Position numbers and translations under genes: made by a program
Part shown: piece by piece, positions 38,178 through 45,724 of the stretch
How the letters are laid out: each line of letters opens with the position of its first letter
Numbering within the stretch: the first letter of the stretch is position 1
Assembly: GCF_000024785.1 (NCBI RefSeq)
Contig: NC_013441.1
Coordinates: 806,001-870,000 of the forward strand
Length of the DNA: 64,000 nt
Reading direction: 5' to 3'
Source of the DNA: Gordonia bronchialis DSM 43247
Lineage (GTDB): Bacteria; Actinomycetota; Actinomycetes; Mycobacteriales; Mycobacteriaceae
Notes under the pieces: generated by a model
Database searches by the model: none
What the model saw: only the letters and a program-made list of their open reading frames with translations
What the model was told of the DNA's origin: nothing

Positions 38178-38192
38178 CTTGCATACTCGCCA
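38178..38192 (+). repeat. target-site duplication, left copy
   Basis: CTTGCATACTCGCCA is identical to 43824-43838 and directly abuts the left inverted repeat of the arsenic transposon. Confidence 0.85.
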
Positions 38193-38266
38193 TGTCATCT
38201 CGCAGGACATCGGTGACACTTCCGCATCAAGACATCGGTGACAGTTTGAGGGGTCTAGGTGGTGAC
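38193..38266. repeat. left end of the transposon with three motif copies
   Basis: GACATCGGTGACA occurs at 38206-38218 and 38231-38243, and TAGGTGGTGACA near 38255-38266. These are probably transposase-binding sites and face the inverted set at the right end. Confidence 0.75.
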
Positions 38267-38370
38267 ACTTTCATTGGTGTCCGCCACGCAACGCTATGTG
38301 CGTTGCGTGGCGCGGTTGCCGACGAGGGGGAGCCTGACGCAGGTGCTCAACTGACCGCGCCTGCGACGGT

Positions 38371-38733
38371 TCAGCAGCACCCTGTGGTGGCGCTGAGAAC
38401 GCTGCGTAGCGCTTCCAACGACTCTGGCCGTGCGCGGTAGTAGACGTTCATCCCTCGTCGGTCAGGAGCGACCATGCCGGCCTTGCGGAGCTGCCCCAGG
38501 TGGTGGCTCGTGGTGGTCTCGGTGAGGCCGACCGCGGTCGCGAGGTCGCAGGTGCAGATCCCGTTCCCGGTGTCGGCGAGCAGGATCGAGACGAGTTTAA
38601 TCCGGACCGGATCGGCCAGGGCCTTGAGTCGCAGAGCGATTTCTAGGGCGGTGTCGTCATCGAGCGGGGCCGCGGATACCGGTGCGCAGCAGATCGGGGC
38701 ACTGATGTCGACCATCGGCAAGGTCTTCGGCAT
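38371..38733 (-). CDS. arsR: ArsR-family arsenite-responsive repressor
   Basis: This 120-residue winged-helix repressor has HTH LATAVGLTETTTSHHLGQLRKAGM. Candidate As(III)-binding Cys are C60 and C62 (GICTCDL), C15-C16 near the N-terminus and a C-terminal CC pair. It is divergent from arsI. It should release DNA when arsenite or antimonite binds. Confidence 0.9.
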   Translation of the reverse strand: MPKTLPMVDISAPICCAPVSAAPLDDDTALEIALRLKALADPVRIKLVSILLADTGNGICTCDLATAVGLTETTTSHHLGQLRKAGMVAPDRRGMNVYYRARPESLEALRSVLSATTGCC

Positions 38734-38757
38734 GACCTGACCATACTGGTGTCCTTA

Positions 38758-38811
38758 ATATATGTCGAAAAGGTGGGCACGCTGCATGGTGACCGTAGTT
38801 CGATATATGTC
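38758..38811. promoter_or_regulatory. arsR-arsI divergent control region
   Basis: ATATATGTC occurs at 38758-38766 and 38803-38811, and TCGAAAA/TTCGATAT give partial inverted symmetry between them. AT-rich elements of this kind are usual ArsR operators, and their position between the divergent starts fits. Confidence 0.5.
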
Positions 38812-38832
38812 TCACAGGTGAAGGTGATGGTC

Positions 38833-39318
38833 ATGTCCCGTATGCAGCTGGCGCTCAATGTCGATGATCTCGATACCGCAATCGAGTTCTACTCCAAGCT
38901 GTTCAACACCAGCCCGGCCAAACGCAAGCCGGGATACGCCAACTTCGCGGTGGTCGAGCCGCCGCTGAAGCTGGTGCTGCTGGAGAATCCCGGCCAGGGC
39001 GGCACGATCAACCATCTCTGCGTCGAGGTCGAGTCGAGCGAGAAGGTGCACGCCGAGATCGCCCGGTTGTCCGGGGAGGGCCTGTTCACCCAGGAGGAGA
39101 TCAACTCCACCTGCTGTTTCGCGACGCAGGACAAGGTGTGGGTGACCGGACCGGCGAAGGAGAAGTGGGAGGTCTACACCGTGCTCGCTGACTCCGAGAC
39201 GTTCGGGACCAGCCCGAAACTGCTGGAACAGAACGCCACCGAGGACGCCGAGCAGGGCTCGGTGTGCTGCGGCGGCAGCGCCGCAGACCAGGCCGAGGCG
39301 CGCACAGCCTGCTGCTGA
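38833..39318 (+). CDS. arsI: ArsI/CadI-family arsenic-carbon lyase-like dioxygenase
   Basis: This 161-residue vicinal-oxygen-chelate protein has likely Fe(II) ligands Q5, H61 (TINHLCVEV) and E113 (KWEVYTV). The vicinal Cys pair C94-C95 (NSTCCFAT) is the trivalent-organoarsenical site of ArsI. ArsI breaks the C-As bond of methylarsenite; the related CadI binds cadmium. A tail with CCGG and TACC adds Cys that could bind metal. ATG 38833 has AAGGTG 6 bases upstream; ATG 38827 is possible. Confidence 0.85.
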   Translation: MSRMQLALNVDDLDTAIEFYSKLFNTSPAKRKPGYANFAVVEPPLKLVLLENPGQGGTINHLCVEVESSEKVHAEIARLSGEGLFTQEEINSTCCFATQDKVWVTGPAKEKWEVYTVLADSETFGTSPKLLEQNATEDAEQGSVCCGGSAADQAEARTACC

Positions 39319-39340
39319 CAGCCTCGGTTCGCGTTCTCGC

Positions 39341-39751
39341 CTACCGCGCGATGCGGTCGGCGAGAACGCGAATCCGGGCGGTGATGTCGTCGCGGATCAA
39401 CCGCATCCGTTCGATGCCGTCGATGCCCCGTTCGGAGGGTTCGTCGGTGTTCCACACTTCGAGGGCGACGCCGTCGGGTGGGGTGACCTCGGCGGTGCCC
39501 ACCACCACGACGAGATCTGCAGTTTGCATCAGTTCGTCGGTGAGTTGCCGCGGCTGGTGTCCGGCGACGTCGGCGCCGACTTCGGCGAGCGCCTGGGCGG
39601 ACAGGTCGTTGACCTGTCCGCCGATCTTCGCACTCGTTCCGGCCGAGGATGGGGTGATCCGGTCGGTGACCGTGGGTGTGAGGTGTTCGGCCATCACGGA
39701 TTTGCCGCGGTTGGACACGCACACGAACAACACCTTCGGTGGTGTGCTCAC
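39341..39751 (-). CDS. ArsC-like low-molecular-weight phosphatase (CX5K variant)
   Basis: This 136-residue LMW-PTP-fold protein starts LFVCVSNRGKSVMAEHL. The P-loop Arg of CX5R is Lys here. That variant occurs in corynebacterial-type arsenate reductase homologues, so it may be arsenate reductase-like or a related phosphatase. It ends the reverse ars operon and overlaps the upstream arsC by 4 bases. Confidence 0.75.
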   Translation of the reverse strand: MSTPPKVLFVCVSNRGKSVMAEHLTPTVTDRITPSSAGTSAKIGGQVNDLSAQALAEVGADVAGHQPRQLTDELMQTADLVVVVGTAEVTPPDGVALEVWNTDEPSERGIDGIERMRLIRDDITARIRVLADRIAR

Positions 39752-40173
39752 TGGCCGACCTGCTGGTTAGCGGGGAGCAGTTCGTCGAGGAGGTCCGCGA
39801 CCAGTGCGCGGATCTGATCGCGGATCGGGCGGACCGCGTCGATGCCTTGGCCGGCGGGGTCGTCGAGGGCCCAGTCGCGGTAGCTGACGCCGGGGAATAC
39901 TGGGCATGTATCGCCACAGCCCATGGTGATCACCACATCGGAGGATTCGACGGTGTCGGGGGTGAGGACCTTGGGTGACTGTGCCGAGATGTCGATACCG
40001 ACTTCAGCCATCGCCTCGACCGCGGCGGGATTGATCGAGTCGGCGGGCGCAGATCCGGCGGAGCGGACCTCGACACTGCCCTGGCTGAGCGCGGTGAGGA
40101 ACCCCGCGGCCATCTGTGAGCGGCCGGCATTGTGGACGCACACGAACAGCACGCTAGGTCGAGAGGAAGGCAT
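39748..40173 (-). CDS. arsC: arsenate reductase (arsenate-mycothiol transferase type)
   Basis: This 141-residue protein has the P-loop CVHNAGRSQMAAG and MGCGDTCPVFPG, the latter carrying the extra Cys of thiol-linked arsenate reductases. It reduces As(V) to As(III), probably with mycothiol/mycoredoxin in this lineage, for export by Acr3. Confidence 0.88.
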   Translation of the reverse strand: MPSSRPSVLFVCVHNAGRSQMAAGFLTALSQGSVEVRSAGSAPADSINPAAVEAMAEVGIDISAQSPKVLTPDTVESSDVVITMGCGDTCPVFPGVSYRDWALDDPAGQGIDAVRPIRDQIRALVADLLDELLPANQQVGQ

Positions 40174-40214
40174 GAGACACAGTCCCTTTCAGCTGTGGAG
40201 GAATGCTCGGAAAG

Positions 40215-40898
40215 TCACACATGGTTGGCCGTGAGTTCGGCAAGGAGCTCACGAACCCGGGCGTCAAGGTCATCGCGGATCGCGCGAACCTCGCTAAGTG
40301 GACGGCCTTCGGGATCGGAGACCGTCCAATCGAGATACCGCTTGCCGGGATAGATCGGGCACGCGTCGCCGCAGCCCATGGCTACGACCACGTCGGCGGC
40401 GGCGACTACATCGTCGGTGAGTGGTTTGGGGTACTGCGTGCCCAAGTCGACGCCGATCTCGGTCATTGCTTCGACGACGGTCGGGTTGATCGAGTGCGCG
40501 GGGGCTGACCCGGCGGAGCGCACGTGTACCCGACCTGTGGCGTGGTGGGTCATCAATCCGGCGGCCATCTGCGAGCGGCCGGCGTTCTGCACGCAGATGA
40601 ACAGGACTTCGGGCACATCCTTGGGCGCCGATCCATCGGCCTGGGCCAGGGCGCGTAATCGATCGGCAGCGAACCGGCCCGCCAAGGTCGTCAGATGCGC
40701 ATGCACCCGGGAGGTGCGCCGTAACGCGGTGTAGGACTCGAAAACACAGCGTTCCACCGTCTGCCGAGACACCACCCCCTCGTACTTGGCGGCCAAGTCA
40801 GCTGCGGTACGGGCGAGCACGGTATGCGGCATCAGCAGCTCGGGTTGGGCGCGGTGTTCGCCGCGACTTAGCTGTTCGTCCAACACATTCTCAGACAT
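40215..40898 (-). CDS. arsC: arsenate reductase with N-terminal three-helix domain
   Basis: This 227-residue protein has an N-terminal helical domain of about 95 residues (TAADLAAKYEGVVSRQTVERCVFESYTALRRTSRVHAHL), then an arsenate reductase domain with CVQNAGRSQMAAG and MGCGDACPIYPG. The helical part resembles the dimerisation domain of extended actinobacterial ArsC proteins. Its start overlaps the acr3 stop by 8 bases. Confidence 0.85.
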   Translation of the reverse strand: MSENVLDEQLSRGEHRAQPELLMPHTVLARTAADLAAKYEGVVSRQTVERCVFESYTALRRTSRVHAHLTTLAGRFAADRLRALAQADGSAPKDVPEVLFICVQNAGRSQMAAGLMTHHATGRVHVRSAGSAPAHSINPTVVEAMTEIGVDLGTQYPKPLTDDVVAAADVVVAMGCGDACPIYPGKRYLDWTVSDPEGRPLSEVRAIRDDLDARVRELLAELTANHV

Positions 40899-41994
40899 CG
40901 CGAACAGGCTCCTTCGATACATCTGGGCTGGAGGCGGTCGTCGGACTGGTGAAGCGTTTCCGCAGTGCCAGGGACACATAGACCAGCGCGACGAGGACGG
41001 GCACCTCGATGAGTGGGCCGATGACTCCGGCAAGAGCCTGACCGGAGGTCGCACCATAGGTCGCGATCGCAACGGCGATCGCGAGCTCGAAGTTGTTGCC
41101 GGCGGCGGTGAACGCCAGCGTGGTGGTCCGTGCGTAACCCAGCCCCATCGCGGCGCCGAGGACGAATCCGCCACCCCACATCACCGCGAAGTAGATCAGC
41201 AGCGGCAGCGCGATCCGCACGACGTCCCACGGGTGAGAGGTGATCTGCTCCCCCTGCAGGGCGAACAGGATGGCGATGGTGAACAGCAGGCCGTAGAGGG
41301 CCCACGGCCCCAATCGGGGGAGGAACGAGGATTCGTACCATTCGCGGCCTCTGGCCCGTTCGCCGATGCGGCGGGTGAGATAGCCGGCGACCAAGGGGAT
41401 TCCGAGGAAGATCAGCACCGACTTCGCGATCTGCCACGGCGAGGTGTCGATGGTCGTCTGTTCCAGGCCGAGCCATCCGGGTAGCACCGAGAGGTAGAAC
41501 CAGCCCAGCACGGCGAACATGATCACCTGGAACACCGAGTTCAGTGCGACGAGGACGGCAGCCGCCTCGCGGTCGCCGCACGCCAGGTCGTTCCAGATGA
41601 TGACCATCGCGATACAGCGCGCCAGACCGACGATGATCAGTCCGGTCCGGTACTCCGGTAGGTCGGGGAGCAGGAGCCAGGCCAGCGCGAACATCAACGC
41701 GGGTCCGAGGATCCAGTTCAACGCCAGCGACCCGAGCAGCAGGCGACGGTCGCCGGTGACCGAGTCGAGTCGGTCGTAGCGCACCTTGGCCAGCACCGGA
41801 TACATCATGATCAGCAGTCCGAGAGCGATCGGCAGCGAGATGCCGTCGATCTCCACGGCCGCCAGGGCGTCACCCAGGCCGGGAACGGTGCGGCCCAGCA
41901 GCAGGCCCGCGACCATCGCTGCGCCGATCCACACCGGCAGGAATCGGTCCAGCGTCGACAGCTTGCCCGCGACCGCGGTGTCGGAGGCGGTCAC
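40891..41994 (-). CDS. acr3: ACR3-family arsenite efflux permease
   Basis: This 367-residue protein has about ten transmembrane helices. The essential Cys lies in VGLARCIAMVIIWNDLA (C127). AGNNFELAIAVAIATYG and GPLIEVPVLVALVYVSL are typical of Acr3. It exports As(III) using the proton-motive force. It overlaps arsR upstream and the extended arsC downstream, so the genes are one operon. Confidence 0.93.
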   Translation of the reverse strand: MTASDTAVAGKLSTLDRFLPVWIGAAMVAGLLLGRTVPGLGDALAAVEIDGISLPIALGLLIMMYPVLAKVRYDRLDSVTGDRRLLLGSLALNWILGPALMFALAWLLLPDLPEYRTGLIIVGLARCIAMVIIWNDLACGDREAAAVLVALNSVFQVIMFAVLGWFYLSVLPGWLGLEQTTIDTSPWQIAKSVLIFLGIPLVAGYLTRRIGERARGREWYESSFLPRLGPWALYGLLFTIAILFALQGEQITSHPWDVVRIALPLLIYFAVMWGGGFVLGAAMGLGYARTTTLAFTAAGNNFELAIAVAIATYGATSGQALAGVIGPLIEVPVLVALVYVSLALRKRFTSPTTASSPDVSKEPVRDV

Positions 41995-42353
41995 TGGTCC
42001 ACCTCACACGAGCGTGTTTCCCCCACGACGGTGGCGAGATCGTCCAGCAGGTCCGACAGTTGCTGCAGCGCTTCAGCGTTCACCCGGTAGTACACCCACG
42101 TCGCGCGGCGCTCACTGGTCACCAAGCCCGCTTCGCGCAGCACCTTCAGGTGATGTGAGATCGTCGGCTGCGACAACTCGAAGGGTCCGGAAATGTCGCA
42201 CACGCAGGCTTCGCCTCCCGGATGCGCGGCAACCTCGGACAACAACCGCAACCGAACCGGGTCCGCAAGCGCCTTCAACAGTGGGGTGACAGCCCCGGTC
42301 TGGTCACCACTGAGGCCGCGGCCCGGTGGCAGCAGAAGATTCTTATTCGACAC
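41991..42353 (-). CDS. arsR: ArsR-family arsenite-responsive repressor
   Basis: This 120-residue repressor has the classical metal-site helix EACVCDISGPFELSQPTISHHLKVL, with C50 and C52 as As(III) ligands. It is first in the operon arsR-acr3-arsC-arsC-arsC-like on the minus strand. It differs from the repressor at 38371, so the element carries two sensors. Confidence 0.92.
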   Translation of the reverse strand: MSNKNLLLPPGRGLSGDQTGAVTPLLKALADPVRLRLLSEVAAHPGGEACVCDISGPFELSQPTISHHLKVLREAGLVTSERRATWVYYRVNAEALQQLSDLLDDLATVVGETRSCEVDQ

Positions 42354-42355
42354 TC

Positions 42356-42367
42356 GTCAATATTGAC
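42356..42367. promoter_or_regulatory. palindrome GTCAATATTGAC before the arsR-acr3 operon
   Basis: This perfect 12-base palindrome starts 3 bases upstream of the arsR start, within the sequence expected for the promoter or a leaderless start. It is a likely ArsR operator. Confidence 0.6.
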
Positions 42368-42488
42368 ATACGTCGATGCAAGCGACAAGGCGTCGATCCC
42401 GTTTAGCGGGTACGACACGCCCGATGGGCTCCAGCCAAGCCGGCACCCTGGCCTTCGGTTCACACTGCAAGCACTCGACGCTCAGGTG

Positions 42489-43763
42489 GTGGTAGTTAAC
42501 GAACCTATCGATCCTGTCGTGCGGCTGGCGATCTCGCAGTGGCCTGATGATGCACCCCGCGGAGCGGTCTCGACATTCTGCGCCGAACACGGGATTTCGC
42601 GGAAGTCGTTCTACGAGTTGCGTAAACGAGCACGAGCGGATGGGCCGTCAGCGGTCCTGGAACCCCGTACCCGCCGCCCGAAGTCGAGCCCGTCAGCGCT
42701 CAATGACGAGGTCAAAGCGCAGGCGGTGGCCGTGCGCGCCGCTCTGGAAGCCTCAGGTCTGGATCACGGGCCGATCAGCGTGCACGACAAGATGCAGTCG
42801 ATGGGGTTGACTCAGGTGCCCTCGACGGCCTCGCTGGCTCGGATCTTCCGCGAAGCCGGTGTCGCTCGCCGTGAGCCAAAGAAGAAGCCCCGCTCGGCGT
42901 GGCGGAGGTTCGTCTACCCGGCGCCGAATGCGTGCTGGCAACTCGATGGCACCGAGTACGTCCTGACCGGTGGACGCAGGTGCGTCATCCTGCAGCTCAT
43001 CGACGATCACTCTCGCTACGCCGTGGGCTCACATGTGGCCGCAGGCGAAACGGCTGAGGCTGCGATCGCCGTGTTCGACAAGGCAGTGACCGCCCACGGA
43101 GTACCTCAACGACTCCTCACCGACAATGGGCCCGCGCTCAACCCCTCGCGGCGCGGCCGTCTCGGTCAGCTCGTCGAGCACGTCCGCGTGCTCGGGGTGG
43201 AAACGATCACCGGCAAGCCCTACAAGCCGACCACGCAGGGAAAGAACGAGCGATTCCATCAGACGTTGTTCCGGTATCTGGACAAGCAGCCATTGGCTGA
43301 CACCCTGGCCGAGCTGCAGGCCCAGGTTGATGCGTTCGATCACATCTACAACACCCAACGGCCTCACCAGGGCCTGCCAGGGCGCGTCACACCACTAGCC
43401 GCGTGGCAAGCCACACCGAAAGCCCATGCACCACAACCGATAGCCGGTGGATCACTGTTCGATCGGCCTACATCGCGCCCGCCCGCGCCGCGCCCAACCG
43501 CCGATCTACCCGAGGGCGTCCTGGTCAGGACTGTCAGCACTTCCGGCACCATCAGCGTGGACTCAGTCACCTACATGGTCGATGTGGACCACGCCTTCAA
43601 CCAGGTCCTCGTCGTCGCCGACGACAGCGCGATCGTCATCGCGAACACCGATGGAGAGGTCGTAGTCGAACACCCTCGACCCGCTCCCGGAGTTCGCTAC
43701 GTCGGCAACCGACAACCCCGCGGCCCACGCCCCACGAAGACCAGACCGTCACCGAAGTCCTGA
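42489..43763 (+). CDS. IS481-family transposase
   Basis: This protein of about 424 residues has an N-terminal HTH (FCAEHGISRKSFYELRKRA) and an integrase core with D153 (WQLDGTEYVL), D212 (LLTDNGPAL) and E254 (TTQGKNERFHQTL). A C-terminal domain resembles that of IS481/ISL-type enzymes (SGTISVDSVTYMVD). GTG 42489 (or 42486) is the inferred start; the open frame runs back antisense into arsR without start signals. The stop lies inside the first right-end motif, so gene and element end together. Confidence 0.88.
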   Translation: MVVNEPIDPVVRLAISQWPDDAPRGAVSTFCAEHGISRKSFYELRKRARADGPSAVLEPRTRRPKSSPSALNDEVKAQAVAVRAALEASGLDHGPISVHDKMQSMGLTQVPSTASLARIFREAGVARREPKKKPRSAWRRFVYPAPNACWQLDGTEYVLTGGRRCVILQLIDDHSRYAVGSHVAAGETAEAAIAVFDKAVTAHGVPQRLLTDNGPALNPSRRGRLGQLVEHVRVLGVETITGKPYKPTTQGKNERFHQTLFRYLDKQPLADTLAELQAQVDAFDHIYNTQRPHQGLPGRVTPLAAWQATPKAHAPQPIAGGSLFDRPTSRPPAPRPTADLPEGVLVRTVSTSGTISVDSVTYMVDVDHAFNQVLVVADDSAIVIANTDGEVVVEHPRPAPGVRYVGNRQPRGPRPTKTRPSPKS

Positions 43764-43823
43764 CACACCAACTGTCACCGAAGTCCTGACACAGAACTGT
43801 CACCGAAGACCCGATACATCACA
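43747..43823. repeat. right end of the transposon with three motif copies
   Basis: CGTCACCGAAGTC at 43747, TGTCACCGAAGTC at 43773 and TGTCACCGAAGAC at 43798 are inverted relative to the left-end copies and spaced 25-26 bases apart. Confidence 0.75.
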
Positions 43824-43838
43824 CTTGCATACTCGCCA
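43824..43838 (+). repeat. target-site duplication, right copy
   Basis: CTTGCATACTCGCCA is identical to 38178-38192 and directly follows the right inverted repeat. Confidence 0.85.
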
Positions 43839-43852
43839 ACTGCTCGGTATTG

Positions 43853-43868
43853 TCGAACATAGTTTCGA
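43853..43868. promoter_or_regulatory. LexA (SOS) box before the 13E12/HNH gene
   Basis: TCGAACATAGTTTCGA matches the actinobacterial SOS box TCGAAC-N4-GTTCGA with one mismatch. It is 20 bases upstream of the HNH gene start. LexA control of 13E12-repeat genes is known in mycobacteria. Confidence 0.7.
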
Positions 43869-43887
43869 TACGGCGGGAGGGGGTCCG

Positions 43888-45724
43888 GTGGCCGACAACA
43901 ATCGGAATGATCAGCAGCAGCGTGATCAGCCGTTGCCGGATGACTCGCGTTCGTCGGCAGGTTTCGAGTCGTGGGAGGTGTGGCGGCCGGGTCAGGGGTG
44001 GGAGCCGGATCTGCCGCAGTCGTATGCGGCGTTGATGGCCGCGCGGATCGCGACCGGACGCGATCCGGCACCGACTGTGGAGTCTGCGGAGTCGTCGGGC
44101 CCCGACGGTGATCTGCCGGCTCTGTATGCGTTGTTGGGGCAGGTGGTCGATCAGATCGCGGTGGCGGAGTCCTCGGGTTTGTCGGATGCGCAGGTCGTGG
44201 AGGTGGCCGAGGCGCATGAGCTGATCGCTCGCCGGTTGTGGGGGTTGGGGCATCGGCGCGTGATGGACATCTCGGACCGTGGTGCGTTCACCAAGACCGG
44301 CCATAAGTCGATCCGCCAGTTCATGGACGACCGGCTGCGGATCACTGATCTGCGTGGTCGGGTCGCGGCGATGGACGCGATCTGTGCCAAGTATTCGATG
44401 CAGGGTGAACGACTCACCCCGAAGCATCCGTATCTGGCCGACGCGGTGGCTGAGGGCGCTCTCGGACCGAGTCATGTGACCGCGGTGTTGGAGGCACTCG
44501 ACAAGATTCCCGCCGCAGTGATTCCGGAGAAGAAGCACGCCGCGGAAATGCTGCTGGTCGATGCCGCCCGATCGTGCACGCCCACCCAGATCGCCAAGGT
44601 GGGGCAGAAGATCCTGGGCTATCTGGATCCGGATGGATCGTTGACCGAGGACCGCGACCGGGCTCGGCGGCGCGGGATTCGCCTGTCCCCGCAGGACTCG
44701 CAGTTGATGTCGAAGATCGTCGGGCATCTGGATCCGGTCACCCGGGCCATGTTCGACATGGTGTTGGCGGCCTGGGCCGCGAAGGGCATGAACAACCCGG
44801 CCGACGAGGTCCCGTTGGTAGGACCGGTCGACGGGGTCGACGAACAACAGGTGGCCGAGGCCGCCGGGCGTGATGATCGCAGCCCGGAGCAACGCAACCA
44901 CGATGCGTTGAAGGCGATTCTGCGGGCGGCCCTGGATGGTGGGGTGTTGGGGCAATCGCATCGCGGCCTGCCGCCGCATCTGGTTGTGAAGATCACCGAA
45001 TCCGAGTTGCGCGAGCAGGCCGGGGTCGGGGAAACCACCACCGGCGCGATGTTGCCGATCTCCGATGTCATCGCCTTGGCAGCCGAAGCCCAGCAGCATT
45101 TGGCGGTGTTCGCCGATCACACCGAAGCCCCCTTGTATTTGGGGCATGGGGAACGGTTGGCATCACGCGATCAGCGGTACATGATCGTCGCTCACCAACC
45201 GGGCTGCACCTGCCCGGGCTGCACTACCTCGACCGCCTACAGCGAGATCCATCACGCGGCGAAGGATTGGGCTGATGGTGGGACGACCGAAATCTCGATA
45301 CGCCTCGGGCTCGCAAGCTCGCACGTGGCTACTCGATCCAAGTATCGACACCCTGACCACTGCGTGCGGGCCGCACAACCGGATGGTGGGACCGAAACCC
45401 GGCCAGTACACCACCAGCGTCCTCACCGACGGGCCGGATGCCGGTCGGACGGCGTGGCGGTTGAACACCGAGGACGGGATGGCGTCGAATGAGGCGCGGA
45501 TCAATCGGGTCAATGACATCGGCCCGCAGATCGTGGCCTACCTGAAAGTCATTCGTGTCCAACGCGAACGCGACCAACAATCCCGGGCCGCGACGACCGC
45601 CCCGCTGATCCGGGATGTGCGGGACACCCCCGACAGTCGTCGTATCCGCCGGATGATCGCCGGCTGCTGGACCATCCGCCGCATCAACCTCGACAACGAC
45701 GACCGCCTCCGAGCCGGACCCTGA
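43888..45724 (+). pseudogene. 13E12/DUF222-HNH endonuclease gene, disrupted
   Basis: GTG 43888 follows GGGAGGGGG. The DUF222 part is intact (VVEVAEAHELIARRLWGLGHRRVMD through LRDRDRARRR-like regions). The HNH part starts CTCPGCTTSTAYSEIHHAAKDWADGG in frame 1. It resumes as DTLTTACGPHNRMVGPKPGQYTT in frame 2 after about 52 extra bases at 45292-45343. In frame 1 translation runs to a stop at 45492 without the ACGPHN half of the nuclease. The original frame-2 end runs to 45724 (DDRLRAGP). Hence the nuclease is predicted inactive unless the insertion is a recent allele. Confidence 0.85.
45292..45343. repeat. about 52-bp repeat insertion inside the HNH gene
   Basis: The inserted stretch begins TCTCGATACGCCTCGGGCTC and ends with GGCTACTCGATCC, the pattern of short dispersed palindromic repeats of actinobacteria. 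It is similar in outline to the TTTCGACACGCGGC...GGCTCAACCAGC repeats at 292, 53331 and 53428. Its length (1 modulo 3) explains the frame change. Exact ends are uncertain by a few bases. Confidence 0.65.

What the first reader, a model, noticed from the sequence alone, without database searches (positions are those of the whole stretch)
38193..43823. A transposon that carries a full arsenic operon and three transposase-type sites at each end
The 15-bp duplication CTTGCATACTCGCCA at 38178 and 43824 brackets a 5.6-kb unit with inverted ends. Each end shows three GGTGACA-type motifs at about 25-base spacing, in opposite orientation. One IS481-family transposase sits at the right end, and the ars genes lie between it and the left end with no second internal end visible. 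A single IS481-type element carrying resistance cargo would be unusual; these elements are normally passenger-free.
Basis: partly seen in the sequence, partly recalled or inferred. Interest (0 to 1): 0.85.

Follow-up and report, generated by a model that had tools for sequence, protein, structure and literature searches.

The report
Arsenic transposon targeting SOS-operator sites
This is a real jumping DNA element carrying arsenic-resistance genes, and it belongs to a lineage of bacterial jumping genes that mostly land at one fixed distance from the DNA switch (the SOS box) that controls the DNA-damage response.

Summary
A 5,631-bp element (38193-43823) has inverted ends, an exact 15-bp target duplication, three GGTGACA-type sites per end, one transposase and seven arsenic-type genes. 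A paralogous gene in the same genome shows the empty site. The same unit sits elsewhere in other Gordonia; a sister copy carries merB/efflux genes instead; most relatives are ~1.4-kb passenger-free IS. Passengers on IS481-type elements were already in print.

The unexpected part is the target. In the transposase's clade, 24 of 29 insertions with exact duplications lie 26-30 nt from a LexA operator (SOS box, TCGAAC-N4-GTTCGA). Across 78 flanks, 28 boxes with at most one mismatch stand at that offset against 0.005 expected. Seven of seven further insertions with both flanks visible agree. Neighbouring genes include lexA itself, a DNA-polymerase-III-alpha gene and many DUF222 genes, so the operator is the shared landmark. 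A sister clade shows none (0 of 53 flanks). Whether the transposase reads the box or contacts bound LexA is not shown. Four literature searches found no report of such targeting. New variant of a known kind.

The parts
38178..38192 (.). left copy of the 15-bp target duplication CTTGCATACTCGCCA
   Evidence: empty counterpart in L110
38193..38270 (+). left end module, 78 bp, TGT tip, GGTGACA-type motifs at element positions 20, 45, 69 (38212, 38237, 38261)
   Evidence: the first 78-81 bp are the left part shared with copies that carry other cargo or none
38371..38733 (-). ArsR regulator, Rv2640c family
   Evidence: NF041413, 195.9 bits, cutoff 155
38833..39318 (+). ArsI/CadI-type metalloenzyme
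   Evidence: NF041414, 218.2 bits, cutoff 116
39341..39751 (-). low-molecular-weight phosphatase / arsenate-reductase-like protein
   Evidence: PF01451
39748..40173 (-). arsenate reductase (ArsC-like)
   Evidence: PF01451 over cutoff; TIGR02689 93.5 bits, below its cutoff of 157.6
40215..40895 (-). arsenate reductase-like protein with N-terminal three-helix domain
   Evidence: PF21234 + PF01451
40891..41994 (-). Acr3-family arsenite efflux transporter
   Evidence: TIGR00832, 444.6 bits, cutoff 282.8
41991..42353 (-). ArsR/SmtB regulator
   Evidence: NF033788, 100 bits, cutoff 55
42468..43763 (+). IS481-like DDE transposase (431 aa homologous part; exact start codon not settled)
   Evidence: NF033577 210.8 bits, just below cutoff 224; rve, rve_3; tree; model
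43747..43823 (-). right end, ACA tip, TGTCACC-type motifs at 43798, 43773, 43747
43824..43838 (.). right copy of the 15-bp target duplication
43853..43868 (.). SOS box (LexA operator) TCGAACATAGTTTCGA, 29 nt from the element end, one mismatch to TCGAAC-N4-GTTCGA
   Evidence: consensus from PMC4181829 and PMC9380542
43825..45492 (+). open frame of the target gene, DUF222 (13E12-type); the true start probably lies downstream of the SOS box
   Evidence: PF02720, 204.1 bits; three other copies 96% identical over the first 560 bases after the duplication in the genome

Best explanation
The unit is a single-transposase element of the IS481-like group that makes about 15-bp target duplications. It has arsenic genes lodged between a fixed 78-bp left end and the transposase gene. 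The transposase probably binds the three repeated sites at each end, pairs the ends and joins them to the target (inferred from anatomy and from the IstA/TnsB/MuA-like model). Its lineage does not insert at random: it mostly inserts 12-14 bp from the edge of a LexA operator, so the element ends 26-30 nt from the box, with the box on either end of the element. This fixed placement is shown by sequence. What reads the operator is inferred: either bound LexA or the transposase itself, perhaps through its C-terminal barrel domain.
For: Ends, duplication, motifs and lack of an inner end. Empty site in the same genome: the flanks align to a paralogous DUF222 locus, with 61 bp on the left at 87% and 892 bp on the right at 96% overlapping by 14 bp at the duplication. 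Same element at other sites: L013 (duplication 14 of 15) and L112 (exact), both with a box; L014 and L016 with a box at the right flank. Modular cargo: L112 (ars) and L011 (merB, TetR, two SMR genes) share only the left 78-81 bp and the right 1.39 kb. Target: 24 of 29 exact-duplication insertions in the clade have a box (at most 2 mismatches) at 26-30 nt. Over 78 flanks: 13 exact boxes at 26-30 and none in 222,992 other positions; with at most 1 mismatch, 28 against 0.005 expected. Sister clade: 0 of 53 flanks. Later loci: 7 of 7 with both flanks seen. Box-side genes include lexA, a DNA-polymerase-III-alpha gene (dnaE2 by inference) and DUF222.
Against: Five of the 29 do not fit the rule: L039, L044, L053 have no box, L025 has 3 mismatches at 27, L046 has a 2-mismatch box at 33. 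Copies without an exact duplication are mixed: L015 has no box on the right flank held, L068 has one at 94 rather than about 29, and L050, L090, L031/L032 have both flanks scored and none at the offset. One-flank remnants L126 and L133 show none. No transposition was seen. The transposase scores just under the NCBIfam IS481 cutoff. Box counts treat several sites in one genome (L034, L035, L037, L038; L047, L048; L023, L055) as separate events.
Confidence: 0.93

Rival explanations
1. The target is the DUF222 (13E12-type) gene, not the SOS box; the box comes along because these genes are LexA-controlled.
For: 15 of 29 box-bearing flanks have a DUF222 gene on the box side and 3 more on the other side (home-made profile); DUF222 copies are repeated in the genome.
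Against: 11 of 29 have no DUF222 hit on either flank held, up to 4 kb. Box-side genes include lexA and a DNA-polymerase-III-alpha gene. Two plasmid sites, L011 and L012, have the box without DUF222. The distance is constant to the box.
Confidence: 0.05
2. The transposase itself reads the SOS-box DNA, with no role for the LexA protein.
For: The C-terminal barrel is the part that differs most between the box clade and the sister clade: 0.30 identity between clades against 0.76 in the catalytic core. The box is palindromic and can face either element end.
Against: The C-terminal domain is also weakly conserved within each clade (0.57 and 0.39). The flanks share the operator of a known host protein, which fits contact with bound LexA equally well. 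Nothing here separates the two.
Confidence: 0.45
3. Insertion is random and only insertions upstream of SOS genes survive.
For: Gaps upstream of DUF222 or SOS genes may be harmless places.
Against: Survival cannot produce a spacing fixed to 26-30 nt, nor 13 exact boxes there and none elsewhere in 222,992 positions. A sister clade with the same length of duplication shows none.
Confidence: 0.01
4. The arsenic genes are resident and the repeats are chance; or the unit is a composite of two IS copies.
For: Ars operons about 91% identical sit on three Gordonia plasmids without this transposase or its ends in the stretches fetched.
Against: Exact duplication, empty paralogous site, same unit at other sites, and no second transposase or inner end. 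A composite may have been the ancestral state, since reduced to one left end.
Confidence: 0.01

Closest known systems
IS481-family elements with about 15-bp duplications, e.g. ISArsp8 (PMC6305408, passages seen)
   Same: TGT tips, long ends with repeated motifs, 15-bp duplication, one transposase
   Different: ISArsp8 has no passengers; only its duplication was seen, so SOS-box placement was not checked
IS481-family elements with passengers: ISArsp12 / ISPfr21 (PMC6305408)
   Same: IS481 transposase plus passengers including an ArsR regulator
   Different: two passengers, 20-bp ends and 6-bp duplication in ISArsp12; no SOS-box link in the passages seen
Tn5053/Tn402 res-site hunters (PMC7765201, passages seen)
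   Same: works like it in one respect: insertion at a DNA site bound by a protein that the element does not encode; carries metal resistance
   Different: needs TniABQ and a target-site resolvase, 5-bp duplications, res sites; here one transposase, 15 bp, LexA operators
IS21 (IstA/IstB), Tn7-like TnsB/TnsC, phage Mu
   Same: Foldseek ranks IstA, TnsB and MuA first for the model, over its whole length but with low TM scores; repeated end sites (recalled for these systems)
   Different: no AAA+ helper ATPase among the element's eight proteins scanned

Membership tests
IS481 family | IS481-type transposase by curated model | tested here: inconclusive
   Best of the NCBIfam models listed, 210.8 bits, but the cutoff is 224; IS3 87.2, ISNCY_2 70.5
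IS481 family | DDE catalytic triad in an rve domain | tested here: met
   PF00665 and PF13683 over cutoff; D160, D219, E261 invariant in the 30 aligned rows, window included; that these are the catalytic residues is inferred
IS481 family | TGT...ACA tips (recalled) and duplication of 2-15 bp (PMC10045372) | tested here: met
   TGT/ACA tips, 15 bp (for the range)
IS481 family | single transposase gene, inverted ends | tested here: met
IS21 family | IstB-type AAA+ helper encoded with IstA | tested here: not met
   none among the element's eight proteins scanned
Tn5053/Tn402 family | tniABQR genes and 5-bp duplications | tested here: not met
   one transposase, 15-bp duplication
Composite transposon | two IS copies flank the cargo | tested here: not met
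   one transposase; no inner end
SOS-box-associated IS481 clade (proposed here) | LexA operator 26-30 nt from one element end | tested here: met
   window 29 nt; 24 of 29 clade members with exact duplications

The most novel reading that the evidence does not exclude
The host's SOS repressor LexA, bound to its operators, is the target-site guide for a whole actinobacterial clade of one-protein transposases: LexA-operator hunters. Sister clades use other protein-marked sites. Target choice would then drop or shift when LexA is cleaved during DNA damage.
Probability: 0.42. Interest if true: 0.9.

Novelty: new variant of a known kind. Interest (0 to 1): 0.77.

Why it matters
A simple one-protein transposase that finds a regulatory operator at near base-pair spacing would be a compact system for studying target choice without helper ATPases or guide RNAs. 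It would tie the movement of metal-resistance genes to the operators of the DNA-damage response, which occur on chromosomes and plasmids of actinobacteria, and it makes a direct test of LexA as a target guide possible.

Tried and rejected
a home-made DUF222 profile drifted because open frames crossed the element end and picked up transposase; discarded and redone on flanks only. Search for a matching duplication or a further left end for L014-L017: none found; L014 and L017 share 2.28 kb of left flank with L010 at 99.96%, L015 1.54 kb at 99.87%, and they look rearranged. Orthologous empty site in other Gordonia: only short matches to the right flank in the 58 other genomes. My note says 6 of 6 for later loci; one search added L116, which I had fetched but not checked, making 7 of 7 (L115 from the same fetch has no recognisable end and was not counted). 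The annotated transposase next to the ars operon on pGKT1 was checked: it does not match this transposase. The structure second look shows mainly retroviral integrase cores because one domain fills the list; IstA, TnsB and MuA were taken from Foldseek, with low whole-length TM scores and a model of mean pLDDT 72. Considered and rejected: random insertion, survivor bias, DUF222 as the target, composite transposon.
Full report
What is there. The window lies at G000:C1:806001-870000 of a 5.29-Mb genome in two contigs. The genus is Gordonia by inference: a genome of the same genus, G014, has a second-contig transposase match at the same coordinates as plasmid pGo-1 of G. hongkongensis. The element spans 38193-43823. 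The sequence CTTGCATACTCGCCA stands directly on both sides. The tips are TGT and ACA. Three GGTGACA-type motifs stand at element positions 20, 45 and 69 on the left and 20, 45 and 71 on the right. Between the ends lie seven arsenic-type genes (two ArsR regulators, ArsI/CadI, three LMWP/ArsC-like proteins, Acr3) and one transposase. No further end is found inside.

Is it an inserted unit? Yes. The target gene, a DUF222 gene, has three further copies in the same genome, 96% identical over the first 560 bases after the duplication. One of them (L110) continues without a break through the insertion point: 61 bp of left flank at 87% and 892 bp of right flank at 96% overlap by 14 bases at the duplication. 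That is an empty site, at a paralogue rather than in a sister strain. Full or near-full copies of the ars unit occur elsewhere in Gordonia: L013 (G. paraffinivorans, 96%, duplication matching 14 of 15), L112 (G. hongkongensis chromosome, 5,774 bp, exact duplication), and L014, L015, L016 and L017 (88-89%, right ends intact; left flanks without a matching duplication, or, in L016, cut off). The own genome holds a second, truncated ars copy at C1 about 2,866,409-2,871,460, 89% identical.

Cargo. The ars operon alone (about 38369-42391) is about 91% identical to operons on Gordonia plasmids pCP86, pCP89 and pGKT1. In the stretches fetched (4 kb each side for pCP86 and pGKT1, 0.5 kb for pCP89) there is neither this transposase nor its ends; the annotated transposase beside the operon on pGKT1 is a different protein. 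G. hongkongensis carries two relatives: the chromosomal ars copy and a plasmid copy (L011, 5,474 bp, exact 15-bp duplication) with merB, a TetR regulator and two SMR transporters. The two share only the first 78-81 bp and the last 1.39 kb. In ten passenger-free relatives printed, the same kind of left end is followed almost directly by the transposase. Cargo is therefore exchanged in one slot. Of 29 clade members with exact duplications, 26 are 1.2-1.7 kb, and three are larger: the window, L011 and L027 (2,858 bp, with a 310-aa open frame as its main extra).

The target. While reading the flanks I saw the palindrome TCGAAC-N4-GTTCGA at a near-constant distance from one end. This is the LexA operator: TCGAAC(N)4GTTCGA in M. 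tuberculosis (PMC4181829 passages) and tCGAAC-N4-GNNCGa in Streptomyces (PMC9380542 passages). The loci came from one scan with the transposase (best 80 of 242 relatives kept) plus the window, L010, L011 and L012. A tree of 83 of the 84 transposases splits them into two groups (97/90). One has 49 rows: 31 with a box (at most two mismatches, offset 25-33, so L046 at 33 counts here), 6 with both flanks and no box, 12 lacking a scored flank. The other has 34 rows, none with a box, 21 of them with both flanks scored. Three of the 12 (L013, L036, L049) do show a box at 29 nt on a short or unscored left flank. In the first group 29 insertions have an exact duplication of 13-15 bp; 24 have a box with at most two mismatches at 26-30 nt (23, plus L049). 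The misses are L025 (three mismatches, at 27), L039, L044, L053 (none) and L046 (at 33). In the second group 0 of 11 exact-duplication insertions have one, two of the 11 being identical (L057, L058).

Chance. Over 78 flanks of the first group (near-identical L017, L032 and, in the second group, L058 dropped before counting), exact boxes number 13 at offsets 26-30 and none in 222,992 other positions. With one mismatch allowed: 28 against 3 elsewhere, 0.005 expected. With two: 29 against 42 elsewhere, 0.073 expected. In the second group, 53 flanks give none at the offset. In the whole own genome there is one exact box, and 658 with up to two mismatches against 151 for the reversed control pattern. 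The gap between box and duplication is 14 bp in 16 of 23 cases, 13 in two and 12 in five.

Test on loci not used to form the idea. Of loci fetched otherwise, seven had both ends visible and no counterpart in the first set. All seven have a box at 27-29 nt on one side: L112, L116, L122, L124, L128, L130, and L134 (two mismatches). L112, L124, L130 and L134 have clear duplications; L116, L122 and L128 do not, L116 is an internally deleted copy, and L128 has two candidate right tips. Three more showed one flank only: L125 yes, L126 no, L133 no (a remnant end). L115 has no recognisable end. L113, L114, L117, L118-L121, L123, L127 and L129 repeat loci of the first set by sequence or contig length and were not counted.

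Box or gene? Of 29 box-bearing flanks, 15 have a DUF222 gene on the box side, 3 on the other side and 11 neither (home-made profile). 13E12-family genes belong to the LexA regulon in M. tuberculosis (PMC4181829; PMC5005354 passages). At L021 the box-side gene is lexA itself (LexA_DNA_bind and Peptidase_S24), and at L037 a DNA-polymerase-III-alpha gene, probably dnaE2. L011 and L012 are on plasmids. The operator is the common feature. The 3.2-kb stretch around the own genome's lexA also holds a one-mismatch box.

How it may work. Shown: ends, duplication, fixed spacing, box on either end of the element. Inferred: the transposase binds the repeated end sites, pairs the ends and joins them to the target. 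The model (mean pLDDT 72) has N-terminal helices, an RNase-H-type core and a C-terminal run of strands read as a barrel. Foldseek ranks IstA, TnsB and MuA first over the whole length, though TM scores are low. Those systems use a separate ATPase for target choice (recalled); none is among the proteins scanned here. The C-terminal part (alignment columns 355-445) is 0.30 identical between the two groups against 0.76 for the core. It is a candidate reader, but it is also the least conserved or nearly so within each group. I put slightly less than even odds on contact with bound LexA.

Against what is known. IS481 elements with passengers, and others with 15-bp duplications, are in print. Res-site hunters of the Tn5053 family are the nearest functional likeness (PMC7765201 passages). 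I found no report of LexA operators as transposon targets in four searches of the open library (listings only); subscription papers are mostly absent from it. I rate this a new variant of a known kind.

Noticed in passing
L084, L087, L073, L082: In the sister clade these insertions lie close upstream of a TrwC-type relaxase gene, so other sub-clades may use other marked sites, such as transfer origins.
   Followed up: partly
L054, L075, L076, L079, L091: Right flanks hold a direct repeat of the TGCCCACA type 21-33 nt from the element end; meaning unknown.
   Followed up: no
L074, L081, L083: Arthrobacter copies have a GTGTGCACA-type palindrome about 20 nt from the right end; a serine resolvase gene lies 0.5 kb away in L074.
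   Followed up: partly
L010 2130-4409, L014, L015, L017: 2.28 kb left of the truncated ars copy in the own genome is 99.96% identical to L014/L017 (1.54 kb, 99.87%, in L015), each from a different Gordonia species: a recently moved larger block.
   Followed up: partly
L010 14760-15843: A second acr3-like stretch (77% to the window's) lies about 5 kb beyond the truncated ars copy in the own genome.
   Followed up: no
window 43825-45492 and G000:C1 about 4097107, 4492373, 4990457: Four near-identical DUF222 genes in one genome, all with a box-like palindrome at the same place: a 13E12-like repeat family.
   Followed up: partly
L011 7880-13353: The same transposase type on linear plasmid pGo-1 of G. 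hongkongensis carries merB, a TetR regulator and two SMR transporters.
   Followed up: yes
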